A stretch of 64,000 bases of DNA from Methanobrevibacter millerae. Its GTDB lineage: Archaea > Methanobacteriota > Methanobacteria > Methanobacteriales > Methanobacteriaceae. The DNA is taken from assembly GCF_900103415.1 (NCBI RefSeq), contig NZ_FMXB01000014.1, positions 1-64,000 on the forward strand. The letters are read 5' to 3'. The notes beneath the pieces are model-generated. The model was not told the origin of the DNA, made no database searches, and saw nothing but the letters and a program-made list of their open reading frames with translations. Each line of letters begins with the position of its first letter. Within the stretch, counting starts at the first letter, position 1. The position numbers were made by a program, and so were the translations under genes. This document shows positions 620-42,423 of this stretch, one piece after another.

Positions 620-692
620 TTAATTCTTTTTATTTTTTTACTCATCACTGAAAAAAGACCTTTAATTAATTAACCATTGGAGCCGTATTAAT

Positions 693-1025: not shown

Positions 1026-1083
1026 ATCTTTGATAACTAATTTAATATACTTGTTTTAATATATTATTCTAATAAGGGATATA

Positions 1084-2103: not shown

Positions 2104-2114
2104 GGTGTTAAAAA

Positions 2115-2519: not shown

Positions 2520-2528
2520 CTGATTAAA

Positions 2529-4572: not shown

Positions 4573-4586
4573 CATAATTAGCACCG

Positions 4587-5271: not shown

Positions 5272-5280
5272 GTTTTATCC

Positions 5281-5865: not shown

Positions 5866-5949
5866 AAAAATATCTCCATTAAGTAATTATTATATTTGTT
5901 TTGGTGATATTTAAAATTTTAAATATGAATTTTTTCAAATATTTAATTA

Positions 5950-8034: not shown

Positions 8035-8066
8035 CTCTCTAAAATTATTTTGATAAATTTATAAAT

Positions 8067-11037: not shown

Positions 11038-11042
11038 TAGTA

Positions 11043-12146
11043 TCACGCCTTTGAAGTGTAAATTGCAGTTTCCAGTGCAGTTGTCATTGAAGACAAAAGC
11101 ATCTTTGTTTTCATATCGGTCTGGTGAATCTTTTTAAGCTTGTTTACTTTGCTTAAAAGCAGCCTGTTTTCATCCTTGGTAAACGGCGAATGCTTCCATG
11201 TATTCATCCAGTGCAGGAGATGGGGATTGACCGAAACGTTCTTGACATCCTTTGAAAAGCCTTCGGTTTTCTTTCTGCAGTAAATGTAGGATTCCATTAA
11301 TTCATCAAGCAGCCTGACGTTGACGGTATTGGTAATTGACTTGTCGTCAGGCAGATCCCTAATGTAGTAATCGTAGCACATGAAATTGTTTAGATAAACG
11401 ATTCCCTTTGCGTTTAGGAGGGCTTCCAGGGTAAATGCCATGTCGTCACCTGAAATGAAAGGCTGAAAACGGATGTTATTATCCATGATTAATTCTCTTT
11501 TATAGATTTTACTCCATACTGAAGGAGCCATTTTCAATAAATCAGGTTCCTGTTCTATATTGTCGATTATGATTCTGTCAATCGGACCGTCCCTTTTATA
11601 GGTCACTTCCAGGTCTTTACCGTAGAGAATCCTTTCGATGAAGTTGTCCCATACAAAGTCAGATACATTTAAGAAATTCGGGTTTTCAAAGGTCTCATCG
11701 GGATAGGCATGCTCCAAATCGTCCTCATACGGTGAATAGGACTTCTGGACGTATCCTCCGTATTCGAATATTCTTCTGAACCTTGCAAAGGCCATGTCCG
11801 CATCGTTTTCCTTGACCGCATTGTATAAGGTTTCACAGGAATCCGGAGTGTATCTGTCGTCCGGGTCTAAAAACATGATGTAATCGCCGGTGCACGCTTC
11901 AATTCCGGTATTTCTTGGCGTGTATGCCGCTCCAGAGTTTTGTTCATGATGTATTGCAATGCAGCAGTCGTATTTTTCTGCGTATTCGTCAATGATTTTA
12001 TCTGATCCGTCCGTTGAGCAGTCATTGACCATTATTATTTCCAAGTTCTCATTTCCGATTGTCTGATTTATTAAAGAGTCGATTCCTCCTCTAAGGTGGT
12101 CTCCAACATTAAAAATTGGCAGGATTATGCTTATCTTATCCTCCAT
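11043..12146 (-). CDS. Family 2 glycosyltransferase
   Basis: A GT-A fold glycosyltransferase of 367 residues. The N-terminal half contains the usual blocks: ISIILPIFNVGDHLRGGIDS, IIMVNDCSTDGS, NSGAAYTPRNTGIEACTGDY and the metal/sugar-nucleotide binding MFLDPDDRY, with an ISGDDMAFT segment after residue 230. No membrane segment is present. The C-terminal 130 residues are helical and may bind the acceptor. It overlaps the 3' end of hemD by 11 nt and is followed directly by glf, so it may use UDP-galactofuranose or act in the same glycan pathway; the sugar cannot be told from sequence. It is a paralogue of the GT2 genes at 32045 and 33077. Confidence 0.88.
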   Translation of the reverse strand: MEDKISIILPIFNVGDHLRGGIDSLINQTIGNENLEIIMVNDCSTDGSDKIIDEYAEKYDCCIAIHHEQNSGAAYTPRNTGIEACTGDYIMFLDPDDRYTPDSCETLYNAVKENDADMAFARFRRIFEYGGYVQKSYSPYEDDLEHAYPDETFENPNFLNVSDFVWDNFIERILYGKDLEVTYKRDGPIDRIIIDNIEQEPDLLKMAPSVWSKIYKRELIMDNNIRFQPFISGDDMAFTLEALLNAKGIVYLNNFMCYDYYIRDLPDDKSITNTVNVRLLDELMESYIYCRKKTEGFSKDVKNVSVNPHLLHWMNTWKHSPFTKDENRLLLSKVNKLKKIHQTDMKTKMLLSSMTTALETAIYTSKA

Positions 12147-12912
12147 TAGAATCTCTCCAGCTATTGAATAGTAGTTCCATCATATCGGGAACAGTGTAAG
12201 TGTCAGGGTAAATGTGGGTAACGTTGTATTCATCAAGGACATTGGCAGTAATTGGGCCGATTGCAACGGTTAAAAGATTATCTGATAACAATTCAGCTAT
12301 TTTTTCATTGTCGTCGGATATCTTAAAGAAGTTGTGAACCGTCAGAGGGCTTGTAAAAGTAATCGCATCGATTTTTCCGTTTTCGATTTTATTTATTAAA
12401 TCCTTCACGCTTTCATCGTCCATCGGAAAGAGTGACTGATAGGCTTCAGCCAGAATCACTTCGTTTCCAAGTTCCTCTAATCCTTTAGGTAAAGTGTCCC
12501 TTGCAGAGGCAGTCCTTGGAATGCCAATTACTTTTCTTGTAATGTTTCTTTTCTTGAACTCCTCAAGAAGGCCTTCGGCGGTAAAGTCATCAGGCATCAA
12601 ATCAGGTTCGATTCCCTCTTTTTTTAGCAAGGAACCTGTCTTATTTCCGATAACGGCAACTTTACATTCCAGTTCATTAAAGAAATCAGGGTAGAATTTG
12701 TTGAAGGAATCAATGGTTGTTGGAGAGGTGAAGACAATCCAGTCCAGTGAATCCTTGTTTTTAACCAGTTCTTTTAATGAATCGGTATTTACAGGCTTTA
12801 AATCCAATGTCGGTGCAAGCACTGCACTTCCACCTAAGTTTTCTACAATTTCACAAGCTTTTTTAGCTCTGTCAGCAGGTCTTGTAATTGCAACAACAGG
12901 TTTTTTCGTCAT
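12136..12912 (-). CDS. hemD: Uroporphyrinogen-III synthase
   Basis: HemD closes hydroxymethylbilane to uroporphyrinogen III, the precursor of siroheme, cobalamin and F430 in methanogens. The protein has 258 residues and the bilobed HemD layout: VAITRPADRAKKACEIVENL, the interdomain crossing LDWIVFTSPTTIDSFNKF near residue 58, the second-domain start VIGIPRTASARDTLP, and the late ITFTSPLTVHNFFKI and LTVAIGPITANVLDEY motifs. Overall conservation of this family is low, but the paired TSPxTxxxF motifs are convincing. AAGGGTAA is 4 nt before the ATG. The partner SUMT gene lies far away, at 50326. HemD and the glycosyltransferase overlap, an unusual functional pairing. Confidence 0.88.
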   Translation of the reverse strand: MTKKPVVAITRPADRAKKACEIVENLGGSAVLAPTLDLKPVNTDSLKELVKNKDSLDWIVFTSPTTIDSFNKFYPDFFNELECKVAVIGNKTGSLLKKEGIEPDLMPDDFTAEGLLEEFKKRNITRKVIGIPRTASARDTLPKGLEELGNEVILAEAYQSLFPMDDESVKDLINKIENGKIDAITFTSPLTVHNFFKISDDNEKIAELLSDNLLTVAIGPITANVLDEYNVTHIYPDTYTVPDMMELLFNSWRDSNGG

Positions 12913-26592: not shown

Positions 26593-26773
26593 TAAAAAAA
26601 CACCTTATAATTTTAATTTAGGTAAATTTTTTCACATATGTATTATAAAGTTTAGAGCATTATTTTATTTAAAAGTTATTGTTAAATATTGTTTTTTATT
26701 TTTTAGGTTCTTTTAAAAATTATTTATGGATTCGGAAAAACTATTTTTTTTTATTTTAATTGATATTATGTGT

Positions 26774-27829: not shown

Positions 27830-27942
27830 AATTGTCACTTTTGATATTTCAGAGAAAGTATTAATTTAAAACTAATAAATTTATCCCAGATACTTATTTA
27901 ATTAATTTATTTTTCTTATTTTAAAAAATTATCATATAGTAC

Positions 27943-28890: not shown

Positions 28891-29434
28891 TTTAATCATT
28901 TCCTATAATATTAATATAGCTAATTATTACACATAGATGATTAATTATAGTATAAATCAAATATTTCAATATTATTTATTTTCATTAGTTTTCCAGTATT
29001 TTAACTTTATTTATATGTTAAAAAGTATAAAAATTAAACTCTAAATTGTATTATATCAAATAAACAATATATATTTTAGGATTAATTATATATCTGATGA
29101 ATATAATTTATAGTAATATTCTTTGGTATTATATTTAATTGTTAATTGTTTTTTACAAAGTTTGTGGGAATAATTCCTGTAAAATAATGCATAGAATAAC
29201 TAAAGAATAAAAAAATTATTATGGTCTTATAATGGGATTATATATGACTTGATTCAGAATCATTTTTTTGGGTTGTTTTGATTACGCACAACAGTAAGAA
29301 TCTATTTCTTCATTGTTTTGTCCATTGACATTTTAAAGATTATTCAAAAAAATATTTTTTCATTGAATTCTTAAACTTTAAGTTGGTGGAATATTAGTAA
29401 ATTTTATTAAGTAATATGTTAAATATCTTTATGT
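28891..29434. other. AT-rich divergent intergenic region
   Basis: Over 500 bases with no credible gene. It separates the minus-strand glycosyltransferase from the plus-strand FkbM methyltransferase. TATA-like stretches (for example 29068-29075 and 29100-29110) occur but none is decisive. Near 29280-29340 the minus strand reads NNEEIDSYCCA before a stop and could be a relic peptide gene; it has no ribosome binding site and I do not call it. Confidence 0.35.
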
Positions 29435-30340
29435 ATGTTAATGAAACTTAAATATCTTTTTGATTATTTTAAATATTTAGAAAATCCGTTTGAAGCTCTA
29501 AAATTTAAATTTGGGGTTTCTGAAAATTACACCATTAAAGTTAAAAATATTGATTCAACAGTTACTTTAAATAATGTAAAAGTACTTAATCATTTAATGG
29601 CTAATTTACCAAAGATAAAACCAGATAAAATTCCTAATTTTTTAATTTATATTAAAAATAGAGATAATGATGATAAATATTTGGAGATTGGGGATATTAA
29701 ATTTATTAATATATATAATTCTGATTTTATTAAAAATCATGGGGATGAATTTTATAGTCATTTAATAGAATTTTTCACTGATGATGTTTTTGAAATATTA
29801 GATTATAAAGGTAGGCATGTTGTTGACATTGGAGGTAATATTGGAGACACTCCTTTATTTTTTGCTAAAGCAGGTGCAGACGTTATTAGCTTTGAACCAA
29901 TTAAACATTTATATGACTTAGCTGTTGAAAATGTTGAACTAAATGGAGATGTTAAAAACAAAATTATATTAGTTAATAAAGCAATTGGTGGGAAAAGAGG
30001 CATACTTCATTTTGATGATTCCTCAATTATTGAGTATGTGGGAAATGATCAGAATCATGTCATGGAAGTGATAACTATATCTGATTTATTAGAACAATTT
30101 GATTTTACACCAGATATTTTAAAAATGGATTGTGAAGGTTGTGAATTTGAAATTATATTAAACAGTGATTTATCCATGTTTAATGATATAATTTTTGAAC
30201 ATCATCAAAGAATTGTTGATAAAGATTATAATCTTCTTGTAAATGAACTCAAAAAACAAGGTTTTGAAATACAACTCTTCGAATTAGAAGGAAGTGATTG
30301 TAAATTTGAAGAACAAGGTATGATATATGCCCACAAATAG
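29435..30340 (+). CDS. FkbM-family SAM methyltransferase
   Basis: A 301-residue protein. After about 120 residues of unclear function, the class I methyltransferase core begins with VVDIGGNIGDTPLFFAKAGA (SAM-binding motif I), VISFEPIKHLYDLAVENVEL and DILKMDCEGCEFEIIL. These are hallmarks of FkbM methyltransferases, which O-methylate sugars or other metabolites in surface glycan and secondary metabolite clusters. Its place in the island suggests methylation of a surface sugar. Two in-frame ATGs (29435, 29441) are possible, without a clear ribosome binding site. It is the only plus-strand gene in this part of the island and has its own promoter. Confidence 0.85.
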   Translation: MLMKLKYLFDYFKYLENPFEALKFKFGVSENYTIKVKNIDSTVTLNNVKVLNHLMANLPKIKPDKIPNFLIYIKNRDNDDKYLEIGDIKFINIYNSDFIKNHGDEFYSHLIEFFTDDVFEILDYKGRHVVDIGGNIGDTPLFFAKAGADVISFEPIKHLYDLAVENVELNGDVKNKIILVNKAIGGKRGILHFDDSSIIEYVGNDQNHVMEVITISDLLEQFDFTPDILKMDCEGCEFEIILNSDLSMFNDIIFEHHQRIVDKDYNLLVNELKKQGFEIQLFELEGSDCKFEEQGMIYAHK

Positions 30341-30504
30341 TATTTTTCTTATTCTTTATTTTTTGTTATATAATTTTTATTATTATATGGATATTTCAAA
30401 AATTTATTTATATGTACCTTAATCGTGAATTGGAGGGCAAAACACATATACTTACCCAGGAATGTGGAAAATATTAGAGAAGTTTCTCTCTTTAAATATT
30501 TAAA

Positions 30505-31935
30505 TTAATTTTTACCTAAAATTTCTTTTATTACATATTTATCATCCTTATCAAATAGTTTTAATAAGTAAAGAGTTGCAAAGTAAATAATTATTCCAAC
30601 TGGTAGGGCTAGCCACATATTTAAGTTTAATAAGTGGAGTGCAATTGCTAGTATTGTTGAACCTATTATTATTTTTCCAATATCATAATATAATTTTTTA
30701 TTTGGCTTTTGACCGGATTTATATATTACATAGAATTGAATAATTAAGATTAATAAATCACTTAATACTGTTGTAATTGCTGCACCGGTATATGTTAAAT
30801 ATGGAATCATGATGAGATTTAAAGTAAAATTAAATGCCGCTGCAATAAGATAAATTTTTGTAACGCTTACTTCTTTGTGTGATGCATTTAATAGACTATT
30901 ACAAGGACCATTAATAAATAACAAACACACCGTCCAGATTAAAATAGATAATGGTGCAGAAGCAGCATCGTATTTATGACCATAAATTAATCGTATAATG
31001 TCCAATGAGTAGAGCACGGTTCCAACAGCTATTGGGACCATTATAAGTGTTAGATATTTGATAGATTTCTCAAAACTAACAATGAGTAACTTTTCATTAT
31101 TTTTATAAAGTCTACTCATTACAGGGAAAATAACTGATCCATAAACTGAGTAAAATAATGTTAAAACTGAGATTAACTTATAAGTTGCATTATAAACTCC
31201 AGTTTCATAATTTCCAACAAGATGCGTTAACATTATCATATCAATGGAGTAATAAATTGAAAATAAAAGTCCAGTTACTGCGAAAGGGATGGATACTTTA
31301 GTAATTTTTTTACAAAAATTTTTATTTATTTCATATTTTGGTTTGGTAATATGTTTTACTAAAACATAATATGAATAGATGCATGTAATAACATTAGCCA
31401 GAAGATAAGCGAATGTAATTCCATAAATTCCCAAATCACTGAATATAGCAATGAGTATAAAAATTAATTGTAATAGATTTAATATTGTATTTCGAATTCC
31501 TTGATATTTTCCTTCTTCAAATGCTTGAAAACAACCGATTATTAATTCATTTAATGATAAAACAATTCTTTGAATTAAAAAAAGCAATGTTACACATATA
31601 GTTACTTCATCTGATTTCATTAAGATTAAAATAACTAGTGTTAAAAAGATTGTTCCAATACTAAAAATACCCTTTAATGGAATAGCATTGCCAACATATT
31701 TAGGAGCGGAAGAATGATCTGTTGAAATGTGCCGAACAATATGGGTACTAATCCCCCAATCCATTGTAAAACTTATTATTCCAGTTAATGAAATAGCAAA
31801 GCCTAAAATACCATATTCACTAACACTCATGTATCTGGCTATTAAAACAGTCCAAATAAATCCACAAATACATGCAATAATTTGTGAAACCAGTATCCAA
31901 CTCATATTTTTAAATATTGTTTGCACTTGACTCAT
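30505..31935 (-). CDS. Polysaccharide flippase (Wzx/MATE-like)
   Basis: A 476-residue membrane protein with about fourteen hydrophobic helices. It starts with the polysaccharide-biosynthesis signature IFKNMSWILVSQIIACICGFI and LIARYMSVSEYGILGFAISL, the RfbX/Wzx family pattern, and later contains PFAVTGLLFSIYYSIDMIML. Flippases move undecaprenyl- or dolichyl-linked glycans across the membrane. As the last gene on the minus-strand run that starts at tagF-like, it is the plausible exporter of the lipid-linked polymer precursor, although teichoic acids themselves usually leave by an ABC transporter. No ABC transporter is visible in the island. Confidence 0.88.
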   Translation of the reverse strand: MSQVQTIFKNMSWILVSQIIACICGFIWTVLIARYMSVSEYGILGFAISLTGIISFTMDWGISTHIVRHISTDHSSAPKYVGNAIPLKGIFSIGTIFLTLVILILMKSDEVTICVTLLFLIQRIVLSLNELIIGCFQAFEEGKYQGIRNTILNLLQLIFILIAIFSDLGIYGITFAYLLANVITCIYSYYVLVKHITKPKYEINKNFCKKITKVSIPFAVTGLLFSIYYSIDMIMLTHLVGNYETGVYNATYKLISVLTLFYSVYGSVIFPVMSRLYKNNEKLLIVSFEKSIKYLTLIMVPIAVGTVLYSLDIIRLIYGHKYDAASAPLSILIWTVCLLFINGPCNSLLNASHKEVSVTKIYLIAAAFNFTLNLIMIPYLTYTGAAITTVLSDLLILIIQFYVIYKSGQKPNKKLYYDIGKIIIGSTILAIALHLLNLNMWLALPVGIIIYFATLYLLKLFDKDDKYVIKEILGKN

Positions 31936-32044
31936 AAAATCATTTTATTATATTTATTTTATAAATATTTTTTTTTAAATTCACAGTTTATTTAAAACTT
32001 AATTAATATAAGTATGAATATTATGATAATTACATATAAAATTA

Positions 32045-33067
32045 TTAATTAGTATTTCGTTTAATTTTTCTAATGAATGTTATTTTCCTAATTGTATTCA
32101 ATGTTTTTAAACTTATAATTGCATATTTAAATTTTTTATCCAATATAAATTGATTAATAATATTCGCCCATTTTTCATCTAATTTAATTTTGAAATCAAT
32201 TTCTATTTCAAACTCATGAATTTTTTTTAAGAGATCTATAAATTCTTTATTAGTTACATTAAGATAAGAACATTGAACTAATAGATAAACAATATTGTCT
32301 TTAAAAATGTCATTTGCTAAATGAAGTTTATTTTCATTTTTTAATATATTTATTATAATGTAATTTGCAGATAACATTTCTTCAACATATCCTATTGAAC
32401 TAACATGAGATAATGAATCTGATTTAATATTCCAATAATATCCAAAATAGTTTTTTAAATAGATTAATTTTTTTGATTTTAAAAAGTATTGTATCATGAA
32501 AATAAAATCATCTGCTGATGTGTTTTCTTTGAATTTAAGTTCATTTTCTATTATAATTTGTTTTTTGTAGATTTTATTCCATACAGAAATATTGTTAAAA
32601 AGTAAAATGTCATCATTTTCAATGATTATATGGTCATTATTTTCAATTCCGTTAACATAATCAATATTGCTTTTTATCTCACTTAATGAATCTACAATGA
32701 CTCTGTCACAGCATACTACATCAGCTTTTTCATTAATCATGGTTTCATATAATTTTTTACACATATCAACATCAATTTCATCATCATTATCCATAAACAT
32801 TATATAATCGGCGGTTGCTTTTTCTAAACCAATATTTCTACCGAAACCTGGGAAACCATGATTTATTTCAGAATAATATGGGATAATATTATCGTATTTT
32901 TCAGCATACTGTTCAATAATTTTTTTAGATTCATCTTTTGAGTTATCATCAACTAAAATCAATTCAATATTATTAAATCCTATACTTTGATTAATTACTG
33001 AGTTAATTGTGTTATCTAAAAATTCCTCTGCATTGTAAATTGGAATAATTAATGAAATTAAATACAT
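32045..33067 (-). CDS. Family 2 glycosyltransferase
   Basis: A 340-residue GT-A glycosyltransferase. Blocks in order: LIIPIYNAEEFLDNTINSVI, LVDDNSKDESKKIIEQYA, GFPGFGRNIGLEKATADYIM, MDNDDEIDVDMCKKLYE (metal-binding region) and a WNKIYKKQIIIEN acceptor segment. No membrane helix. It is closely related to the neighbour at 33077 and to the gene at 11043, so the three share ancestry. It starts 9 nt after the upstream gene's stop, in a tight operon. It likely adds one sugar to the linkage unit or to the polymer. The sugar is unknown. Confidence 0.88.
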   Translation of the reverse strand: MYLISLIIPIYNAEEFLDNTINSVINQSIGFNNIELILVDDNSKDESKKIIEQYAEKYDNIIPYYSEINHGFPGFGRNIGLEKATADYIMFMDNDDEIDVDMCKKLYETMINEKADVVCCDRVIVDSLSEIKSNIDYVNGIENNDHIIIENDDILLFNNISVWNKIYKKQIIIENELKFKENTSADDFIFMIQYFLKSKKLIYLKNYFGYYWNIKSDSLSHVSSIGYVEEMLSANYIIINILKNENKLHLANDIFKDNIVYLLVQCSYLNVTNKEFIDLLKKIHEFEIEIDFKIKLDEKWANIINQFILDKKFKYAIISLKTLNTIRKITFIRKIKRNTN

Positions 33068-33076
33068 AAAACACCT

Positions 33077-34078
33077 CTATAATGATTTTCGATATAATGT
33101 TAATATAGGGCTATTTCTCAACATATTCAAAAAATTCATATAATAACTTGCGATTGTAAATTGTTTTTTCATTATTAATTTATTTAATATTTTTAACCAT
33201 GTTTGCTCCATATTCAACTCAACATTTAAACTTTTTTCAAATTCATAAAATTTCTTTAAATATTTCTTTTTATCCCCATTATAATTCAATAAGCGCAAAA
33301 AGAATGGGACTGACCTTTTTGAAAATAAATGATACAAAATATCCGGCCGATTTTTACTTTCAATAACTTCTTTTGTTTTTATAAAAGAACATAATGCAGA
33401 TTCAATGTTTTTTTCATTTGACTTCATGGAATGTGAAGTTTCTTCATTAGTATGATATTTATATCCATGATAATTATTTAAGTAAATCATTTTTTTAGCA
33501 TTTAAAAATTCAGTAATTGAAAATAATATGTCTTCACCGGATGGGAGCTCTTCAAAATATAAATTATTGTTTTTTAAAAATTGATGGTTATGAATCACAT
33601 TACATACAGAGACTTTATCACAAGGAAGATCTTTACTGCAGTCTAGTTCAAGTTCTTCAATATTTTTATCATAATGATAATCTAATCTTGAGAAGTTTGT
33701 ACCTATCATTTGATGATTACATTTAACTAATTCAACATTTTTTTCTTCAATTTTATTAAATAATGTTTCACACATATCTTCTGCATATTCATCGTCAGGG
33801 TCTAAAAACATTATGTATTTGCCCGATGCTTTTTTAAGACCAGTATTTCTAGGTCTTGCAGCACCTCCTGAATTAACATCATGGTAGATTGCAATAAAAT
33901 TGAAATATTTGTCTGCATATTCTTTAATAATATTTTTTGAATTATCTGTAGAACAATCATCAACCATTATTACCTCAATATCATCTAAATCCATAGTTTG
34001 ATTCAATATTGAATTTAAAGCTCTTCTAAGATAGTTATCTACATTAAATATAGGGATTATTATTGAAATTTCATACAT
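33077..34078 (-). CDS. Family 2 glycosyltransferase
   Basis: A glycosyltransferase of 333 residues when started at the ATG at 34078, where GGTGG lies about 10 nt upstream. The longer frame from 34114 overlaps the epimerase gene and has no support. Motifs: IIIPIFNVDNYLRRALNS, IMVDDCSTDNSKNIIKE, NSGGAARPRNTGLKKASGKY and MFLDPDDEY (the DxD-like donor-binding site), followed by LPSGEDILFSITEFL. It follows the Rpe-like gene after 4 nt. Its role is probably glycosylation of the polymer backbone or linkage unit; donor and acceptor cannot be read from sequence. Confidence 0.88.
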   Translation of the reverse strand: MYEISIIIPIFNVDNYLRRALNSILNQTMDLDDIEVIMVDDCSTDNSKNIIKEYADKYFNFIAIYHDVNSGGAARPRNTGLKKASGKYIMFLDPDDEYAEDMCETLFNKIEEKNVELVKCNHQMIGTNFSRLDYHYDKNIEELELDCSKDLPCDKVSVCNVIHNHQFLKNNNLYFEELPSGEDILFSITEFLNAKKMIYLNNYHGYKYHTNEETSHSMKSNEKNIESALCSFIKTKEVIESKNRPDILYHLFSKRSVPFFLRLLNYNGDKKKYLKKFYEFEKSLNVELNMEQTWLKILNKLIMKKQFTIASYYMNFLNMLRNSPILTLYRKSL

Positions 34079-34082
34079 TAAA

Positions 34083-34760
34083 TTACTTCCACCCAATAAC
34101 TTTCCGTTTTTCAATAATTATTTCTTTAATTGGTTTTTCTGAATTCATAAATAAACTTGAAGTTCCAGAGACGAAAATTGTTGATCCTTGAGCATACAAT
34201 TTTTCTGCATGTTCTATAGATACGTTACCATCAGATTCAATTTCTAAATCTAGATTAATTTCATTCAAATATTTTCTCAAATCACCCACTTTTTCTATTG
34301 TTTCTGGAATTAATTTTTTTCCAGCGAAACCTGGGGGGGTGTGCATAACTAAAATACCATCTATTTGTGGGAAATATTCATCTAATTCATGAAAATTAGT
34401 TTTAGGATTAATTGCAATAAATTTACGTGCACCAAGTCTTGTTAAATAATCAATGCACTCTTGAATTTTATCATTATTTTCAAAGTGAAATGATACTTGG
34501 TCTCCTTCACGTATGTCGAACCAACTCATTTTTTCTAATGGATTATTTACTAAAAAATGGTAATCAAAAGGGATTTCTGTAATTCTTCTCAAGCTTTTTA
34601 CATAATCTGTTCCTAAAGCAAAGTTTGGAACAAATTGACCATCCATAATATCAATATGTAAATATTCCAAGTTCACTTCTTTAAATTCTGTTAAAAAGTA
34701 AAATAATTTGTCTAATCCAGCACACATCATTGATGCTGAAAGTTTTCCTTTTTTATTCAT
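34083..34760 (-). CDS. Ribulose-phosphate 3-epimerase-like protein in the CDP-ribitol operon
   Basis: A 225-residue TIM-barrel epimerase of the Rpe family. The metal-binding LHIDIMDGQFVPNFALG block is intact; MHTPPGFAGKKLIPET takes the place of the usual VNPGFGGQxF, ESDGNVS that of the DGG(V/I)N strand, and VSGTSSLF of the VAGS site. It therefore keeps the acid/metal residues but has changes in the phosphate loop, so the substrate may be a related pentulose or hexulose phosphate. In the operon, an Rpe supplying ribulose-5-phosphate from xylulose-5-phosphate fits with the next gene, a ribulose-5-phosphate reductase. The 3' end of the upstream gene overlaps its start by 8 nt. Confidence 0.78.
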   Translation of the reverse strand: MNKKGKLSASMMCAGLDKLFYFLTEFKEVNLEYLHIDIMDGQFVPNFALGTDYVKSLRRITEIPFDYHFLVNNPLEKMSWFDIREGDQVSFHFENNDKIQECIDYLTRLGARKFIAINPKTNFHELDEYFPQIDGILVMHTPPGFAGKKLIPETIEKVGDLRKYLNEINLDLEIESDGNVSIEHAEKLYAQGSTIFVSGTSSLFMNSEKPIKEIIIEKRKVIGWK

Positions 34761-35784
34761 TTTTAAACATAACCTTTAATTTTTTTTCATTAGCATCTCT
34801 TAAATAATCAAATGCTTCAGCATATTCATTCATAGAGAACTCTTTACTTATCAAGGATTCAAATGAGATATTTCCTCTAACCATCAAATCTAAAATTTCT
34901 TTCCAATCATTAACACTAGTATTATAACTTGAATTCCAAATTCCTTTTAAAATAATTTGTTTTCTTAAAATTTTCCAATATATTTGTTTGTCTAAATAAA
35001 CATCATCTTTTGGGTTTCCAACTAAAATAACAGTTCCAAAATTGCCTGTTAATCCAATTGATTGATTTATTGATTCATTGTTTCCAACAACTTCAAATAC
35101 TTTATCAAAGTTTTTATCTTCAAGTTCATTTGTTAATAATGTATTTAATCCTAATTCTTTTGAAAATTCTAAACTTTTAGATGATCTTCCAATTACAGTA
35201 ACAGTAGCTCCTTTACCTTGTGCAACTAATGCTATCATCATTCCAATTGTTCCAGTTCCACTGATAGCTATTTTTTCTCCTTTTTTAATGTTCCCTATGT
35301 TTACGGAGTGTATTGCAACTGCTCCAGGTTCGCAAAGTGCAGCAATTTTATAGTCAAGTGAATCATCAAATAAAACCAAGTTCCATTTTGGAACAAGCAA
35401 ATATTCTGAATATCCTCCATCACATCTGGACCCAAAATAATTGTAATCAGAGCATTGTGCATATTGTCCTTCTTTACAAGCATCACATTCAAAACAAGGC
35501 ATTAACGGAAATATTGCAGTCTTTTTACCTAACAAATCTTCATCTTCATCGTTCACTGCTACAATCTGACCAGACATTTCGTGACCAGGAATAGTTGGAA
35601 AATGATAAGTTCCATTTACAAATACCCTTTCAATGTCACTAGAACATATTCCACAATATTTAATTTTAACTAAAACATTATCTTTTTCAAGTTTATATGT
35701 TTCTTTTTTCTCAAACCTCAAATCTCCAATTCCGTATAAATTTAATACATCCATAGTTTTTGGAATCTCTTCAATTGTTTTCAT
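34753..35784 (-). CDS. TarJ-like ribulose-5-phosphate reductase (zinc alcohol dehydrogenase family)
   Basis: A 343-residue medium-chain zinc dehydrogenase. Catalytic Zn ligand Cys47 is in YCGICSSDIE, followed by PGHEMSG; the structural zinc site MPCFECDACKEGQYAQC is complete; the Rossmann motif is SGTGTIGMM. In gram-positive bacteria a close relative, TarJ, reduces ribulose-5-phosphate to ribitol-5-phosphate with NADPH. The call rests mainly on context: its ATG overlaps the next upstream gene, a TarI-like cytidylyltransferase, by 4 nt (ATGA), the same pairing seen in bacterial tarIJ. The substrate is inferred; another sugar phosphate or polyol dehydrogenase is possible. Confidence 0.75.
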   Translation of the reverse strand: MKTIEEIPKTMDVLNLYGIGDLRFEKKETYKLEKDNVLVKIKYCGICSSDIERVFVNGTYHFPTIPGHEMSGQIVAVNDEDEDLLGKKTAIFPLMPCFECDACKEGQYAQCSDYNYFGSRCDGGYSEYLLVPKWNLVLFDDSLDYKIAALCEPGAVAIHSVNIGNIKKGEKIAISGTGTIGMMIALVAQGKGATVTVIGRSSKSLEFSKELGLNTLLTNELEDKNFDKVFEVVGNNESINQSIGLTGNFGTVILVGNPKDDVYLDKQIYWKILRKQIILKGIWNSSYNTSVNDWKEILDLMVRGNISFESLISKEFSMNEYAEAFDYLRDANEKKLKVMFKNE

Positions 35785-36497
35785 AATCCACCTTTCTTTA
35801 GTATTATGTGTTCAGCAAGTTCTAAATCCGCATCAGTTGTTATTTTAAAGTTTATAGTATCTCCTTCAATCATTTTAATTGGATAATTATTTAAAGTACA
35901 AACCTGTGATGTTCCAGTAATAATTTCTTTTTGTTCTTCAGTTAATTTATTCTCAAGTTCAATAAATGTTTTTAGATTAAAGCTATCTGGGGATTGGCCA
36001 TTAAATAACGTTTTTCTAATTGGAATTCTATCAACATAATCTCCATCTGTTGATAATAATATTGTATCATTAACAGGTACTGATGTTACAGTTGCACCAT
36101 ATTCTTTTGCCCCTTCAATATTATCTAAAATAATTTTTTCAGTAACAAATGGTCTTACACTGTCATGAATTACAATAATATCATTATCATAAATTTCATT
36201 TAACTCAATAAGTTTAATAACATTGTGAATTGAATCGATTCTTTCATTTCCTCCTTTTACAAGAGTAATTTTAGATATAACATCTTTATTAAAATATTTT
36301 TCAAGTAATGAATTCACATAATCTTTGTAACAATCATCTATGGCGATATAAATATAATCAAAGCAATTAATTTCCACAAAAGTTTTTAATGTATAGATTA
36401 TTATGGGTGTTCCTTCGATTTCATAATATTGTTTTGGAACTTTGATACTCTTCATTCTGCTCCCAGTACCGCCCGCTAATATTACTGCATAATTCAT
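35781..36497 (-). CDS. TarI-like ribitol-5-phosphate cytidylyltransferase (IspD family)
   Basis: A 238-residue cytidylyltransferase with the IspD/TarI pattern: VILAGGTGSRMK and PKQYYEIEGTPIIIY, VKGGNERIDSIHNVI, IVIHDSVRPFV, and DTILLSTDGDYVDRIPIRKT. These residues bind CTP and the phosphate substrate. Archaea make isoprenoids by the mevalonate route (HMG-CoA synthase and thiolase are in this window), so a true MEP-pathway IspD is not expected. TarI is the better reading: CTP plus ribitol-5-phosphate gives CDP-ribitol. It pairs with the TarJ-like gene by a 4-nt overlap, and the TagF-like polymerase is 80 nt upstream. Confidence 0.82.
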   Translation of the reverse strand: MNYAVILAGGTGSRMKSIKVPKQYYEIEGTPIIIYTLKTFVEINCFDYIYIAIDDCYKDYVNSLLEKYFNKDVISKITLVKGGNERIDSIHNVIKLIELNEIYDNDIIVIHDSVRPFVTEKIILDNIEGAKEYGATVTSVPVNDTILLSTDGDYVDRIPIRKTLFNGQSPDSFNLKTFIELENKLTEEQKEIITGTSQVCTLNNYPIKMIEGDTINFKITTDADLELAEHIILKKGGL

Positions 36498-36577
36498 ATA
36501 AACATCTTCTAATTATATTTTAGTTTTACTAAAATTAGTTATATATTAATATTAATTATATTTACTTAAAAATGTTA

Positions 36578-37669
36578 TTATTCCAAATACCCCATAATTA
36601 AATTTACAACTTTTTCAGTGGAATGACCATCACAAGATTCCATGTATTTATCTTTAAATTCTTTGTAATTCACTTCGTTTTCTAAATTATTCAATGTGTC
36701 TAAAAGTTCATTAAATGTTTTGCAGTAATGTCCTGGAAGGTCTTCTGGAAATTTAAGATATATTCCTGTTTTTGATATGTATTCTTCAGAATCAGTACAA
36801 TAAAATATAATTGGTTTGTCTAAAAGTAAATAATCAAAAAATGCTGAGGAATAATCTGTTATAAATACATCTGCTCCCACCATTAATGAGAGGTAAGAAA
36901 CATCGCCCAGATCTATTATTCGTTCATAATTTTTAGGTACAAATTCAATTTTATCATGTATCTGTAACGGATGTCTTTTAACTAAGAAAACAGAATGGGT
37001 TTCGGTTAAATACTGGTTTAATTGCTCCCAATCGATTCCATAATCAAAGTCTAATAACTCCATATGTTCATATCTTCTATAAGTTGGTAAATACAATATT
37101 ATATTTTTATTTTCTAGTTCTGGAAATTTCTCTAAGAATTCATGTTTTAATTCGGTTTTGTTATTTATAAGTAAATCGGACAATGGATAACCTAATGGTT
37201 TAATACGATTTGGTGAAAGTTTAAAACAATTTTCAAAATGGTCTGAAACGTGAGGAGAACTAATAATAAATGCATCATACTGGGCATGAGTATATTCTTC
37301 AATAATTGGATGATTAGGTAACGCTAATGCAACTTTTTTAAATGCTCCTGGCCCATGCCATAATTGGACTAATTTTTGATTATTTTTTAATGGAATATAT
37401 GCAAAATAACGATAATTATCATCCAGAACAATTACTTTGCTTGTCATTATAAAAAAAGATATATGAAAAATGTCTCTAAGAGTGTGGGGCATAGGTTTTA
37501 TTATAACTTTTTTATCACAAGTTAAAGCATCATATACTAATTGATCGTTTTCCATTAATGTTGCATTTCTAGGACTTCCTAAAAATAAAACTCTTCTCTT
37601 TACAGGTAAAATTGAGCTAATTATTTTAAATATTGAATTAATTATTTTTAGTGAAAAAGGTTTACTCAT
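36578..37669 (-). CDS. TagF/TarL-like glycerol/ribitol phosphate polymerase domain protein
   Basis: A 363-residue member of the CDP-glycerol glycerophosphotransferase family (Glyphos_transf). Diagnostic segments are RVLFLGSPRNATLMENDQ, VQLWHGPGAFKKVAL, ILYLPTYRRYEH and FITDYSSAFFDYLLLDKPI, with IFYCTDSEEY. The family transfers polyol-phosphate units from CDP-glycerol or CDP-ribitol onto a growing teichoic acid. The protein is shorter than TagF of Bacillus, lacking its N-terminal extension, and has no membrane span. First gene of the minus-strand run: TagF/TarL-like, TarI, TarJ, Rpe-like, two GT2, flippase. Start at 37669 is divergent from the methyltransferase gene, 187 nt away. Confidence 0.85.
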   Translation of the reverse strand: MSKPFSLKIINSIFKIISSILPVKRRVLFLGSPRNATLMENDQLVYDALTCDKKVIIKPMPHTLRDIFHISFFIMTSKVIVLDDNYRYFAYIPLKNNQKLVQLWHGPGAFKKVALALPNHPIIEEYTHAQYDAFIISSPHVSDHFENCFKLSPNRIKPLGYPLSDLLINNKTELKHEFLEKFPELENKNIILYLPTYRRYEHMELLDFDYGIDWEQLNQYLTETHSVFLVKRHPLQIHDKIEFVPKNYERIIDLGDVSYLSLMVGADVFITDYSSAFFDYLLLDKPIIFYCTDSEEYISKTGIYLKFPEDLPGHYCKTFNELLDTLNNLENEVNYKEFKDKYMESCDGHSTEKVVNLIMGYLE

Positions 37670-37856
37670 AGTATCAATTTAGATTTTGTATTTTATATTA
37701 TTTAATAATTATAATTTTTATGGTGTGAGTTAAATTTTTTAATTGAACAAAAAGATATATAGTAAATTAATAAAATATATTTATTAAACTACATAATGGA
37801 GAATATAAAGTAATAAGTTAGTTTTATTTATTATAATTAAAGTAGGAGACTTTGAA

Positions 37857-38564
37857 ATGGCACGATTATATGGTGACAATGAAGATATTAACTCAGAAAA
37901 AGTAAAAGATTTTTTCAACGAAAGAGCTAATAAAAAAGTGGATAGTGATTTATCTATTGTTTTATTCCAAGATAAAGAAAATTCTGAAAGAAGAAACAGT
38001 GAAGAAAATGCATTGTTTTTAGAAAATATTGATTGTTCTGATAAAAAGGTTCTTGAAATCGGTTGTGGAATTGGCAGATGGGCCGAATTTTTTAAAGATA
38101 AATGCCAATGTTACTTAGGTTTGGATTATTCTGAAAATCTTGTTGGCATTGCTAAAAATTCTCATAATTTTGATAACTGTAATTTTCAGGTAATGTCTGC
38201 TTTTGATATTAAAATTGATGAATTGCTTGTTGAACCACCTTTTGATGTTATTTTAATTAGTCAAGTTTTAATGTATATCAATGATGATAATTTGAAAGTT
38301 TTGATAAATGAGATTAATACTGTAATTTCAGATGATACTCAATTATTTATAACTGAACCAATTTCATGTATGGATTCAAGATTAACCCTTAAAGACTTTT
38401 ATTCTGATGAGTTAGAAGCAGATTATAATGCAATTTATAGGACAGAAAATGAATATCGAGAATTTTTCCAAAAGTTAAATTGCAATGAAATTAACTCTTT
38501 TGATATATTTATGGAATTGAATGAACGATCTGAAACTCAATATATGTCATTTGTCATTAAATAA
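37857..38564 (+). CDS. Class I SAM-dependent methyltransferase
   Basis: A 235-residue methyltransferase. Motif I is VLEIGCGIGRWAEFF (residues about 64-78), then YLGLDYSENLVGIA, and VILISQVLMYINDD as the motif IV region. There is no signal peptide. The gene has AGGAG before its start and is followed after 15 nt by the fused cytidylyltransferase/PLP enzyme, so they form an operon. In that context a methyltransferase acting on an amino group (making N-methylated ethanolamine-like phosphates) or on the sugar is plausible. The substrate is not given by sequence. The ATG at 37857 is divergent from the polymer operon. Confidence 0.82.
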   Translation: MARLYGDNEDINSEKVKDFFNERANKKVDSDLSIVLFQDKENSERRNSEENALFLENIDCSDKKVLEIGCGIGRWAEFFKDKCQCYLGLDYSENLVGIAKNSHNFDNCNFQVMSAFDIKIDELLVEPPFDVILISQVLMYINDDNLKVLINEINTVISDDTQLFITEPISCMDSRLTLKDFYSDELEADYNAIYRTENEYREFFQKLNCNEINSFDIFMELNERSETQYMSFVIK

Positions 38565-38579
38565 ACATGGGATGATTGA

Positions 38580-40403
38580 ATGGACGCTATTATATTGGCT
38601 GCGGGAATGGGTAAACGTTTAAAAGGCCTAACAAAGGATAAAACAAAATGTATGATTACTGTAAATGATGTCACATTAATCGAAAGAATGCTTACTCAGC
38701 TGGATAATTTAAATCTTGAAAAAATTGTTTTAGTTGTAGGATATCATGCTGATAAATTAAAGGAGTTTATTTCTACTTTAGATATCAAAACAAAAATAGA
38801 TTATGTTTCAAATGAAATTTTTGACAAAACGAATAACATCTATTCTCTATTTTTGGCAAAGGATTATTTGGAAAAATCAGACTGTTTGATATTGGAATCC
38901 GATTTGATTTTTGATGATGGAATTCTTGAAGATTTAGTTGGTGATGAAAGGCCTAATTTAGCTGTTGTGGCCAAATTTGAAAGCTGGATGGACGGAACTG
39001 TAGTTACAATTGATGATGAAGATAATATTGTAAATTTCTTGTCAAAAAATCAGTTTTCATTTGAAGAGATTACGGAGTATTATAAAACAGTAAACATTTA
39101 CAAATTCTCAAAAGATTTTTCCAAAAATTTCTATATTCCATTTTTAGAAGCATATACTAAAGCTTTGGGATTAAATGAATACTATGAACAAGTTTTAAAA
39201 GTAATAGCTAATTTTAAAGAGTCTAATATTAAAGTTAAAAAATTGGATGATGAAAAATGGTATGAAATTGATGATATTCAGGATTTAAATATTGCAGAAA
39301 GCATTTTTGCAGATTATGATGAGAAATTAGAAAAATATTCATTAAGATATGGTGGATATTGGAGATATCCACACATGATTGATTATTGTTATCTTGTAAA
39401 CCCTTATTATCCACCAAAATTTTTAATAGAGGAGTTAAAATCCAATTTTGAAGATTTACTTGTAAATTATCCTTCAGGCATGGATATTAATTCATTGCTT
39501 GTAGCCAAGTATTTCGGTTTGGATGTTGAGAATATATGTGTGGGTAATGGTGCATCAGAAATTATCAAATCATTAATTGAACATGTTTTGGGTGAAGATT
39601 CTAAATTAGGTGTTATAATACCTACTTTTGAAGAATATCCCAATAGGATGAATCCAAAAAATATCATAGCCTTTGATTCTTCTGTCAATGATTATAAATA
39701 TGGTTCCGAAGACATTATTGATTTCTTTGATGATAAAGATATTTCCATGTTGGTGTTAATCAATCCAGATAATCCTTCGGGTAATTATATTTTTAAAGAA
39801 GATGTCTTTAAATTAATTGAATGGTCAGATGAAAAAGGTATTTTATTGGTAGTTGATGAATCTTTCATTGACTTTGCTGATGCAGAAGAGGATGCCACAT
39901 TTTTAAATCAAGCAATTTTAGATGAAAACCCTAATTTTATTGTTGTTAAAAGTATATCTAAGTCATTCGGAGTTCCAGGATTAAGATTGGGAATTTTAGC
40001 ATCTTCAAATTTAGAATTAATTGATTATATTAAGAAAGATTTATCTATTTGGAATATTAATTCTTTTGCAGAATATTATCTTCAGATATTTGAAAAATAT
40101 AAATCAGATTATGAAATTGGTTTGGAAAAATTTAAAAATGCTAGAAATAAGTATGTTGATGATTTAAAAGCTATTTCTAATTTAAAAATCTATCCTTCAC
40201 AAGCCAATTATATAATGTGCGAAGTTTTATGTGATATTAGTAGTTATGAACTAACAAATATCTTATTGAACGATTATAATTTATTTATAAAAGATTTATC
40301 AGATAAAAAAGGTTTTAATGGTGAATCATTCATTAGAATAGCTGTTCGTGATGAAGAAGATAATTTATTGTTAGTTAATGCATTAAAAGAGATTTTGAAT
40401 TAA
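38580..40403 (+). CDS. Fused cytidylyltransferase and CobD/HisC-like PLP enzyme
   Basis: A 607-residue two-domain protein. Residues 1-240 are a LicC/PntC-like nucleotidyltransferase, with LAAGMGKRLKGLTKDKTKCM and ESDLIFDDG. From about residue 250 a class I/II PLP enzyme begins: YGGYWRYPHMIDYCYLVNPY, VGNGASEIIKSL, NPDNPSGN, VVDESFIDFAD and SISKSFGVPGLRLG with the PLP Lys461. PGLRLG and DESFIDF are close to CobD (threonine-phosphate decarboxylase). Known relatives include phosphoserine decarboxylase-like CobD proteins and the fused PntC-transaminase of Treponema. It may form a phospho-aminoalcohol and activate it with CTP. The pairing is inferred, not demonstrated. Confidence 0.82.
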   Translation: MDAIILAAGMGKRLKGLTKDKTKCMITVNDVTLIERMLTQLDNLNLEKIVLVVGYHADKLKEFISTLDIKTKIDYVSNEIFDKTNNIYSLFLAKDYLEKSDCLILESDLIFDDGILEDLVGDERPNLAVVAKFESWMDGTVVTIDDEDNIVNFLSKNQFSFEEITEYYKTVNIYKFSKDFSKNFYIPFLEAYTKALGLNEYYEQVLKVIANFKESNIKVKKLDDEKWYEIDDIQDLNIAESIFADYDEKLEKYSLRYGGYWRYPHMIDYCYLVNPYYPPKFLIEELKSNFEDLLVNYPSGMDINSLLVAKYFGLDVENICVGNGASEIIKSLIEHVLGEDSKLGVIIPTFEEYPNRMNPKNIIAFDSSVNDYKYGSEDIIDFFDDKDISMLVLINPDNPSGNYIFKEDVFKLIEWSDEKGILLVVDESFIDFADAEEDATFLNQAILDENPNFIVVKSISKSFGVPGLRLGILASSNLELIDYIKKDLSIWNINSFAEYYLQIFEKYKSDYEIGLEKFKNARNKYVDDLKAISNLKIYPSQANYIMCEVLCDISSYELTNILLNDYNLFIKDLSDKKGFNGESFIRIAVRDEEDNLLLVNALKEILN

Positions 40404-40935: not shown

Positions 40936-42423
40936 ATGACAGATAAAAATGAGTGGGGAAGCAACCTGTCATTCGTTTTTGCAATGATAGGTTCGGCAGT
41001 CGGACTTGGAAACATTTGGAGATATCCTTACGTGCTCTATTCAAACGGGGGAGGAGCCTTTTACATCCCGTACATCGTAGCAATTCTCATAATGGGAATT
41101 CCATTCTTAATCCTTGAGTATGGCGTCGGATACAATTTCAAGTCTTCATTTGCAAAAGCGGCAAGAAAAATCAATTCCAAATGCGAATATCTGGGCTGGT
41201 TTCTGCCGGTTGCCGTATTCATGATAATGATTTACTACTCAGCCATTCTCGGATGGGACGGAATCTATATGATGCTAAGCTTCACCAAGGGCTGGGGAGC
41301 CGATCCTAACAATTTCTTTACCACAACGCTTCTTCAGTCTTCAGACTCATTCATGGGACTTTTGAACTTCATTCCGGTAATAGCTGTTGCAATGCTTGCC
41401 GGATGGATTATAATCTGGTTTATCTCACACAGGGATTTGGAGCAAGGTCTGGGAAAGGTATCAAAGATTTTAGTCCCATTATTATTCATAATAATGATTA
41501 TAATTGTGGCATTTTCACTTACATTGCCCGGTGCGTCAATCGGCCTTGCAGAGCTTTTCAATCCGGACTGGTCGCTTCTGACTCATTTTGAAATCTGGAT
41601 GGCTGCATTCGGCCAGATCGTGTTTTCCTTAAGCCTCGGCATGTCAATAGCGTTTACCTATGCAAGCTACGTTAAAGATGACGCCGATTTGATAACAAAC
41701 ACAATTTCAATAGCTCTTGCAAACTCATTATTTGAAAACTTCGCAGCTTTAGGGGTCTTTTCCATTCTGGGCTACATGTCACTTCAGTCAGGAACTCCGG
41801 TGGCGGATCTGGTTTCACAGGGAACCGGTCTGGTATTTATTGTCTATCCGACGGTTTTCAACGTTTTAGGCCAGTGGGCATACGTTTTAGGACCGCTATT
41901 CTTCCTGACAGTTTATCTGGCAGGCCTTACAAGCATCCTCTCCACAATCGAGCCTTTGTCATTTTCAATACAGAACAAGTTCGCATCTACAAGGTCAAGA
42001 ACCATGACTGCGCTCATCATAGTCGCTGCGGCAATATCCATGATTTATGCAACCTCGTTCGGAGGGTCCCTTTTAGGCTTTGTCGATACCTTCATCAACC
42101 AGATTGCATTGCTTTTGGGTGTTGTCATTGAATGCATTGTCTTTGCCTGGATATTCAAGGTCGAAAAGCTAATCGATTTTTTAAATTCCAAAAGCAAAAC
42201 AATAAAATTAGGCAAATGGTGGCTTATTATCGTCAAGTACATCCTTCCGATTTTCATTTCAATCATCTGGATTGGGGGAATGTTTGACGTTGCAAAAAGC
42301 GGTTCATATGAGCAGCTGACGTTCACGGTTATCTCAGCGGCAATACTTCTTTCGGCCACTTTAATCTTCACGATTCTTCCCGCAAAGAACCCCGACTGGG
42401 ATGAGGCTGAAGAAAGGGTTTGA
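40936..42423 (+). CDS. Sodium-dependent transporter (SNF/NSS family)
   Basis: A 495-residue membrane protein of the neurotransmitter:sodium symporter family, with about twelve helices. The first two helices carry the family signature WGSNLSFVFAMIGSAVGLGN and IWRYPYVLYSNGGGAFYIPY, the Na+ and substrate site. The loop GIPFLILEYGVGYNFKSS and TM8 region SLSLGMSIAFTYASYV are also typical. Prokaryotic members take up amino acids with Na+. The substrate is unknown. It stands after a radical-SAM relic with its own TATA region (AAAATATAACTAATAATTATG). An unusual palindrome pair follows its stop. Confidence 0.93.
   Translation: MTDKNEWGSNLSFVFAMIGSAVGLGNIWRYPYVLYSNGGGAFYIPYIVAILIMGIPFLILEYGVGYNFKSSFAKAARKINSKCEYLGWFLPVAVFMIMIYYSAILGWDGIYMMLSFTKGWGADPNNFFTTTLLQSSDSFMGLLNFIPVIAVAMLAGWIIIWFISHRDLEQGLGKVSKILVPLLFIIMIIIVAFSLTLPGASIGLAELFNPDWSLLTHFEIWMAAFGQIVFSLSLGMSIAFTYASYVKDDADLITNTISIALANSLFENFAALGVFSILGYMSLQSGTPVADLVSQGTGLVFIVYPTVFNVLGQWAYVLGPLFFLTVYLAGLTSILSTIEPLSFSIQNKFASTRSRTMTALIIVAAAISMIYATSFGGSLLGFVDTFINQIALLLGVVIECIVFAWIFKVEKLIDFLNSKSKTIKLGKWWLIIVKYILPIFISIIWIGGMFDVAKSGSYEQLTFTVISAAILLSATLIFTILPAKNPDWDEAEERV

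What the first reader, a model, noticed from the sequence alone, without database searches (positions are those of the whole stretch)
30505..37669. CDP-ribitol and polyol-phosphate polymer pathway in an archaeon
A tight operon codes for an Rpe-like epimerase, TarJ-like reductase, TarI-like cytidylyltransferase, TagF/TarL-like polymerase, two GT2 enzymes and a flippase. Because archaea use the mevalonate route, the IspD-family enzyme must serve another pathway, and its pairing with a zinc dehydrogenase is the bacterial tarIJ arrangement. The cells may therefore carry a ribitol-phosphate (teichoic-acid-like) polymer outside or within the pseudomurein wall.
Basis: partly seen in the sequence, partly recalled or inferred. 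Interest (0 to 1): 0.75.

Follow-up and report, generated by a model that had tools for sequence, protein, structure and literature searches.

The report
Swappable sugar-alcohol coat genes in archaeon
A methane-making archaeon carries a cassette of bacterial-style genes that probably activates a five-carbon sugar alcohol other than ribitol for its surface coat, inside a genome island where relatives carry different cassettes, much like capsule types in bacteria.

Summary
All seven genes are present and form a tight operon. The IspD-family enzyme does not serve isoprenoids: no IspF in the genome, HMG-CoA synthase in the window. The tarIJ reading fails: a canonical tarIJ pair lies on contig C25, and TarJ occurs in 83 of 150 Methanobacteriales genomes. 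The window reductase is 19-26% identical to TarJ, groups with galactitol/arabitol-phosphate dehydrogenases and has an NADP-type motif; its cytidylyltransferase lies outside the TarJ-paired clade. The reductase occurs in 2 of 150 genomes, each time beside the Rpe homologue. The genome has no transketolase, so xylulose-5-P has no evident other use. Best reading: Ru5P to Xu5P to D-arabinitol-1-P (or xylitol-5-P) to CDP-pentitol, transferred by the TagF-family enzyme into a Wzx-flipped glycan; a hexitol route is not excluded. The operon sits in an AT-rich hypervariable hemD-SNF island whose alleles carry at least three kinds of IspD-reductase module. Teichoic-acid-like genes in Methanobrevibacter were in print; the island and non-ribitol module were not found in 10 library searches.

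The parts
36578..37669 (-). PF04464 TagF-family polyol-phosphate transferase (363 aa), nearest solved relative TarL
   Evidence: Pfam 219 bits; PDB 8va1 TarL 134 bits against 76 for TagF 3l7i; histidine motifs LWHG and KRHP present
35781..36497 (-). IspD/TarI-family cytidylyltransferase, predicted CDP-polyol synthase, not of the TarJ-paired clade
34753..35784 (-). zinc MDR polyol-phosphate reductase, GatD/arabitol-P-dehydrogenase-like, NADP-type motif VIGRS
34083..34760 (-). Rpe-like ketose-phosphate 3-epimerase; the only full PF00834 match of the genome
33077..34114 (-). family 2 glycosyltransferase (listed with a TTG start; an internal ATG 12 codons in is likelier)
32045..33067 (-). family 2 glycosyltransferase
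30505..31935 (-). Wzx/MOP flippase, also present in other island alleles
   Evidence: 66-71% in L029, L030, L047, L084 and 50-53% in L046, L089
25729..26592 (-). LicD-family phosphotransferase of the same island
   Evidence: PF04991 131.9 bits
37857..40403 (+). divergent arm: methyltransferase (37857-38564) and fused PntC-like nucleotidyltransferase / CobD-like PLP enzyme (38580-40403)
12136..12912 (-). uroporphyrinogen-III synthase (hemD), conserved left border of the island
   Evidence: 74% to the L028 copy; best NCBIfam match 130 bits, below its cut-off of 246
40936..42423 (+). SNF-family symporter, conserved right border of the island
   Evidence: 86-90% in L028, L029, L040, L045, L085

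Best explanation
The core (35781-36497, 34753-35784, 34083-34760) is a dedicated CDP-pentitol pathway other than canonical TarIJ. Predicted steps: the Rpe homologue converts D-ribulose-5-P to D-xylulose-5-P; the NADPH-type zinc reductase reduces it to D-arabinitol-1-P (second choice xylitol-5-P); the IspD-family enzyme makes CDP-arabinitol (or CDP-xylitol); the TagF-family enzyme transfers the pentitol phosphate onto a lipid-linked glycan built by the two GT2 enzymes and exported by the Wzx flippase. The operon is one allele of a hypervariable surface-glycan island between hemD and an SNF symporter in Methanobrevibacter. Shown by computation: gene identities, operon layout, clade and motif differences, co-occurrence, no transketolase, island alleles. 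Inferred: every substrate, product, direction and the final polymer. The confidence is for a CDP-pentitol other than ribitol; arabinitol specifically would be about 0.35.
For: (1) A separate canonical tarIJ pair in the same genome; TarJ in 83 of 150 genomes of the order. (2) Reductase in 2 of 150 genomes; epimerase in 3 of 150, the same two plus one 28% hit whose contig looks bacterial; in both true cases epimerase-reductase-IspD are contiguous. (3) No transketolase N domain in the genome while M. jannaschii is detected as control, so Xu5P has no evident other use; Ru5P can come from a Fae-Hps-like protein on C8 (naming recalled). (4) NADP-type GRS motif in 2 of 2 archaeal reductases against Asp in 6 of 6 bacterial GatD-type relatives: reductive direction. 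(5) Arabitol-phosphate dehydrogenase activity of Bacillus methanolicus extracts reduces Xu5P with Km 0.03 mM (passages of PMC6685057). (6) Bacterial parallel: Parabacteroides distasonis plasmid with IspD-SDR-Rpe-TagF-TagF-GT2, whose Rpe is the nearest outside kin of the window's (95/94). (7) TagF-family protein nearer to the ribitol-P enzyme TarL than to glycerol-P TagF.
Against: The phosphate-binding loops of the epimerase (PGFAG, GTSxLF) resemble AlsE and accessory Rpe-like proteins more than canonical Rpe (FGG, GS), and its score is below the rpe equivalog cut-off (160.8 against 212.6). The nearest reductase in 'plasmids' (E. raffinosus, 39%) lies beside an AlsE-like epimerase, which points to hexitols. 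The window enzyme still passes the NCBIfam model named D-ribitol-5-phosphate cytidylyltransferase (245 against 166). No arabinitol or xylitol is known to me from archaeal walls.
Confidence: 0.5

Rival explanations
1. One reading: the pair makes CDP-ribitol from Ru5P and the operon builds a poly(ribitol phosphate) teichoic-acid-like polymer; the reductase is a non-orthologous replacement of TarJ and Rpe is incidental.
For: The IspD enzyme passes NF001183 and its four best solved relatives are TarI-type sequences; TagF-family protein closest to TarL; reductases other than TarJ do occur with CDP-ribitol (Bcs1-type fusion of Haemophilus; recalled).
Against: NF001183 is passed by TarI-family proteins with four different kinds of reductase, so the name does not discriminate; a full tarIJ already exists in the genome; without transketolase Rpe has no evident Xu5P to turn into Ru5P; clade and motif differ.
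Confidence: 0.2
2. CDP-hexitol route: the epimerase is AlsE-type (fructose-6-P to allulose-6-P), the reductase gives an allitol/altritol phosphate and the IspD enzyme activates it.
For: AlsE-like loop motifs; PDB search scores AlsE (120.1 bits) as high as Rpe (120.6); the E. raffinosus neighbour epimerase is AlsE-like (100/98); the reductase scores best against galactitol-1-P dehydrogenase.
Against: The NCBIfam Rpe subfamily is passed (168.9 against 165) while the AlsE model is far below cut-off (144.9 against 271); the nearest epimerase kin sits in another IspD-TagF locus, not a hexitol operon; TarL-like transferase.
Confidence: 0.2
3. The module makes another CDP-polyol or CDP-ketose (for example CDP-xylulose or a tetritol), or the epimerase works apart from the pair.
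For: Sister IspD enzymes pair with an extended SDR of unknown product; no substrate was measured.
Against: Overlapping genes and joint occurrence in the same 2 of 150 genomes.
Confidence: 0.1

Closest known systems
TarI/TarJ CDP-ribitol pathway of Gram-positive bacteria
   Same: IspD-family cytidylyltransferase overlapping a medium-chain reductase, near a TagF-family enzyme
   Different: reductase not TarJ, cytidylyltransferase outside the TarJ-paired clade, extra Rpe homologue; the genome has its own true tarIJ elsewhere
CDP-D-arabinitol pathway AbpA/AbpB of Streptococcus pneumoniae 17F/24 capsules (title of Wang 2012 seen in a reference list; paper not held)
   Same: short IspD-sized enzyme plus a second enzyme in a capsule locus (abpA 720 bp)
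   Different: sequences not available here; an Rpe gene in that locus is not known to me
PTS pentitol/arabitol catabolic operons (Listeria L064, Bacillus methanolicus atl)
   Same: GatD-type dehydrogenase overlapping an rpe gene (Listeria L064)
   Different: catabolic, NAD-type Asp motif, PTS genes, no cytidylyltransferase
Parabacteroides distasonis plasmid polysaccharide locus (L070)
   Same: IspD + reductase + Rpe + TagF + GT2 in one run
   Different: reductase is an extended SDR; two TagF; a bacterium
Teichoic-acid homologues reported in Methanobrevibacter ruminantium M1 (PMC2812497)
   Same: genus-level precedent, high wall phosphate
   Different: no pathway, polyol or island was resolved in the passages read

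Membership tests
TarIJ (CDP-ribitol synthase pair) | TarI-family cytidylyltransferase with IspD catalytic residues | tested here: met
   PKQ, HDSVRP, DTI, R of IPIRK and K of NFKIT kept (residue roles recalled); NF001183 passed
TarIJ (CDP-ribitol synthase pair) | cytidylyltransferase inside the TarJ-paired clade, motif YQGQTPQ | tested here: not met
   FNGQSPD; clade with SDR-paired enzymes 100/99; joining it to the TarJ/GpsA clade rejected, p-AU 0.003
TarIJ (CDP-ribitol synthase pair) | partner orthologous to TarJ | tested here: not met
   19-26% to seven TarJ; true TarJ at C25
TarIJ (CDP-ribitol synthase pair) | product CDP-ribitol | not testable with these tools
   needs enzyme assay
Wall teichoic acid system | PF04464 transferase | tested here: met
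   219 bits
Wall teichoic acid system | full-length TarL/TagF polymerase | tested here: not met
   363 aa; TarL 141.7 bits against cut-off 1000, TarF 102 against 550, TarB 96.6 against 500
Wall teichoic acid system | TagGH-type ABC exporter in the locus | tested here: not met
   Wzx flippase instead; an ABC-2 permease and TagH-like ATPase lie on C13
Wall teichoic acid system | linkage-unit enzymes (TagO, TagA, TagB) | not tested
   not searched
Ribulose-phosphate 3-epimerase (PF00834) | catalytic/metal residues | tested here: met
   HxD of HIDIMDG, H of DYHFL, D of ESDGN kept (roles recalled)
Ribulose-phosphate 3-epimerase (PF00834) | rpe equivalog score and canonical phosphate loops | tested here: not met
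   TIGR01163 160.8 against 212.6; FAG and GTS loops
Galactitol-1-P / arabitol-P dehydrogenase | zinc ligands of the family | tested here: met
   C47, H68, E69 and the four-Cys site aligned with relatives; TarJ lacks the four Cys (ligand roles recalled)
Galactitol-1-P / arabitol-P dehydrogenase | equivalog score and NAD-type Asp | tested here: not met
   194.3 against 550; GRS instead of Asp
CDP-arabinitol pathway (AbpA/AbpB) | sequence relationship to AbpA/AbpB | not testable with these tools
   sequences not at hand, papers not held
MEP pathway IspD | accompanying MEP enzymes | tested here: not met
   no PF02542 IspF in the genome, 9 of 14 controls positive; IspF is the only MEP partner searched

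The most novel reading that the evidence does not exclude
Methanobrevibacter has a capsule-serotype-like locus between hemD and an SNF symporter in which modules for activating different polyols are exchanged: a predicted CDP-arabinitol/xylitol set (ADH+Rpe), IspD+SDR, IspD+GpsA and probably IspD+SDR+GatZ, alongside exchangeable phosphonate or phospho-amino-alcohol arms. The window would be the first archaeal CDP-pentitol pathway other than ribitol, on top of a TarIJ-type CDP-ribitol pair found in about half of the Methanobacteriales genomes searched.
Probability: 0.4. Interest if true: 0.72.

Novelty: new variant of a known kind. Interest (0 to 1): 0.5.

Why it matters
Methanobrevibacter species are major rumen and human-gut methanogens, and their surface is a target for vaccines against methane (PMC2812497). 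If the cell coat varies by exchange of phospho-polyol modules, antibodies and viruses would face serotypes, as in pneumococci. It also gives specific, assayable predictions for archaeal CDP-polyols: CDP-ribitol from the core tarIJ and a second CDP-pentitol from this cassette.

Tried and rejected
The genome-contig scan with a two-sequence reductase alignment used poor peptide patterns and gave only G099's record plus distant oxidoreductases; it spent the only scan, so bacterial kin came from 'plasmids', a biased sample. A viral-contig scan with Rpe found nothing; a phage-collection search with the Parabacteroides Rpe listed only records without annotation among the rows shown and was not pursued. 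The C. difficile 'ispD' plasmid hit looked at is a real IspD next to ispF and was set aside. The third Rpe hit (G029) lies on a contig whose neighbouring ORFs look bacterial (PASTA-, RsgA-, NrdR-like by eye) and is not counted as a true case. A first clade test asked the wrong question, since it left out the nested GpsA-paired rows; one search is the fair one. In the tree, eleven of 51 rows were dropped: ten as second names of loci, and with them one locus (L011 = L089, TarJ-paired) was left out altogether. I considered and rejected IspD as a MEP enzyme. No structure prediction was run, since a fold would not settle pentulose against hexulose.
Full report
OBSERVATION. The seven genes exist at the given coordinates on the minus strand. 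Pfam identifies a flippase, two GT2 glycosyltransferases, a PF00834 epimerase, a zinc alcohol dehydrogenase, a PF01128 (IspD) enzyme and a PF04464 (TagF) enzyme; best-family E-values run from 9e-34 to 9e-65, the dehydrogenase 1.6e-23. IspD/ADH and ADH/Rpe overlap by 4 and 8 bp. The nearest genome with the same cassette, G099, is of the same genus as the window's and is recorded as an uncultured Methanobrevibacter (L060).

THE IspD ARGUMENT. The genome has no IspF (0 matches; 9 of 14 control genomes positive), and the window itself carries archaeal HMG-CoA synthase (630 bits against cut-off 353) and a thiolase. It keeps the IspD/TarI catalytic residues, and its four best solved relatives are TarI-type enzymes.

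NOT tarIJ. The own genome has a second copy at C25:12921-13613. It overlaps a gene that is 46-54% identical to four bacterial TarJ genes, and TarJ is present in 83 of 150 genomes of the order. The window reductase is 19-26% identical to the seven TarJ proteins aligned and 32-39% to six GatD/arabitol-P-type dehydrogenases. It has the four-cysteine site that TarJ lacks. In 36 distinct archaeal IspD loci read here (35 plus the window) the partners are TarJ 16, GpsA-like 8, NTP-transferase/choline-kinase fusion 4, SDR 3, SDR+GatZ 2, this ADH 2, and one cut by a contig end. These loci were chosen to cover classes and are not a random sample. The motif tracks the partner: TarJ-paired enzymes have YQGQTPQ, window and G099 have FNGQSPD, GpsA-paired have H(A/S)QTPQ. 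In the tree of 45 rows the window enzyme groups with G099 and the three SDR-paired methanogen enzymes (100/99), outside the clade of TarJ- and GpsA-paired enzymes; forcing window and G099 into that clade is rejected (p-AU 0.003). The NCBIfam name D-ribitol-5-phosphate cytidylyltransferase is passed by the TarJ-paired (377 bits), window (245), G099 (238), SDR-paired (220) and GpsA-paired (278) proteins, cut-off 166, so it does not tell ribitol from other polyols.

WHY AN EPIMERASE. Of 150 genomes of the order the reductase occurs in 2. The Rpe homologue occurs in 3, the same 2 plus a 28% hit on a bacterial-looking contig. In both true cases the order is Rpe-ADH-IspD, with 89, 84 and 81% identity between the two genomes, although in G099 a LicD-family gene stands where the window has TagF. 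It is the only full PF00834 match of the genome; the second is a 22.5-bit hit in a protein that reads as Fae-Hps (naming recalled). No transketolase N domain is found, while M. jannaschii rings as control. So Rpe is not part of a pentose-phosphate cycle here and most simply makes the ketose phosphate that the reductase uses. Both archaeal reductases have VIGRS at the cofactor-ribose position, like the NADP(H)-dependent ketose reductase 1e3j (TARS), whereas 6 of 6 bacterial GatD-type relatives have Asp: this suggests NADPH and the reductive direction. Bacterial catabolic kin pair the same two families: Listeria has rpe overlapping a galactitol-1-P-type dehydrogenase within a PTS operon. In Bacillus methanolicus extracts arabitol-phosphate dehydrogenase activity reduces Xu5P with Km 0.03 mM (PMC6685057, abstract and found passages read). 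Reduction of Xu5P at C2 gives D-arabinitol-1-P or xylitol-5-P (chemistry, recalled).

BACTERIAL PARALLEL. A Parabacteroides distasonis plasmid has IspD-SDR-Rpe-TagF-TagF-GT2 in one run. Its Rpe is the best plasmid hit to the window's (43%) and groups with it (95/94 in a 14-row tree with long branches). This supports a functional link of Rpe-like epimerases with IspD/TagF loci independent of the archaea.

AGAINST. The epimerase keeps H, D, H, D but its loops (PGFAG, GTSxLF) look like AlsE and accessory enzymes, and AlsE and Rpe structures score alike (120.1 and 120.6 bits). The nearest reductase, of E. raffinosus, lies near an AlsE-like epimerase. A hexitol is therefore a live rival. The TagF-family protein is nearer TarL (134 bits) than glycerol-P TagF (76 bits), which weakly favours a pentitol. 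It is short and below all named cut-offs, so single transfer is as likely as polymerisation.

ISLAND. GC is 25% over 25729-40403 against 39% in 1-12000 and 38% in 40936-64000. hemD and the SNF symporter both border the region in the window, G099 and G046; most other fetched alleles show one of the two borders, and L030, L046, L047 and L084 show neither within the stretch fetched. Alleles with a border seen carry IspD+ADH+Rpe, IspD+SDR, or IspD+GpsA-like (GpsA subfamily model 262 against cut-off 257); IspD+SDR+GatZ (L046, L047) has the same island genes around it but no border in view. The opposite arm is PEP mutase plus phosphonopyruvate decarboxylase (411 against 320 and 463 against 313 bits), or class V aminotransferase plus TagD-Gfo fusion, or, in the window, methyltransferase plus a fused nucleotidyltransferase/CobD-like enzyme. 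The TarIJ pair of C25 and an ABC-2 permease, TagH-like ATPase and two GT2-TagF fusions on C13 are better candidates for a ribitol teichoic acid in this genome than the window.

LITERATURE. Leahy et al. 2010 (PMC2812497, passages) already report high wall phosphate and teichoic-acid gene homologues in M. ruminantium; PMC5816558 (passages) names one CDP-glycerol glycerophosphotransferase. Ten library searches (listings seen) showed no paper on archaeal CDP-ribitol, CDP-arabinitol or such an island; the library lacks most subscription journals. The CDP-D-arabinitol pathway of S. pneumoniae 17F is known to me from a reference title and recall only.

Noticed in passing
window 37857-40403 (+): Methyltransferase followed by a fused PntC-like nucleotidyltransferase (6pd1, 61 bits) and threonine-phosphate-decarboxylase-like PLP enzyme (6oux, 174 bits); the fusion is in 7 of 150 genomes, all one genus. 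It could make CDP-ethanolamine or a methylated form for a LicD transferase; not tested.
   Followed up: partly
L026 8894-10617 (G000:C25): Canonical tarIJ pair near argB/argJ-like genes; TarJ in 83 of 150 Methanobacteriales genomes, implying widespread archaeal CDP-ribitol.
   Followed up: yes
L028 11124-17292 and L044, L046-L049: PEP mutase fused to a cytidylyltransferase domain, phosphonopyruvate decarboxylase and a DUF6564 protein: phosphonate genes in the same island position in several Methanobrevibacter.
   Followed up: partly
L040 1067-2733, L041-L045, L048, L049: Bacterial-type GpsA (glycerol-3-P dehydrogenase) beside a TarI-family enzyme, odd for archaea, whose lipids use glycerol-1-P; may give CDP-glycerol by an IspD-type enzyme.
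   Followed up: partly
L050-L053: IspD-family gene next to a 532-aa NTP-transferase/choline-kinase fusion: possible CDP-choline-type module outside the island.
   Followed up: no
L058 3459-12767 (G000:C13): ABC-2 permease, TagH-like ATPase and two GT2-TagF fusion proteins (877 and 1380 aa): candidate teichoic-acid-like polymer locus.
   Followed up: partly
L088 (G029:C212): Contig with Rpe and neighbours that look bacterial (RsgA-, PASTA-, NrdR-like by eye): probable contamination of that assembly.
   Followed up: no
L102 3992-5762: Lactiplantibacillus plasmid capsule locus with IspD plus the same kind of extended SDR (33% to the methanogen SDR): a pair of unknown product seen in archaea and bacteria.
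   Followed up: no
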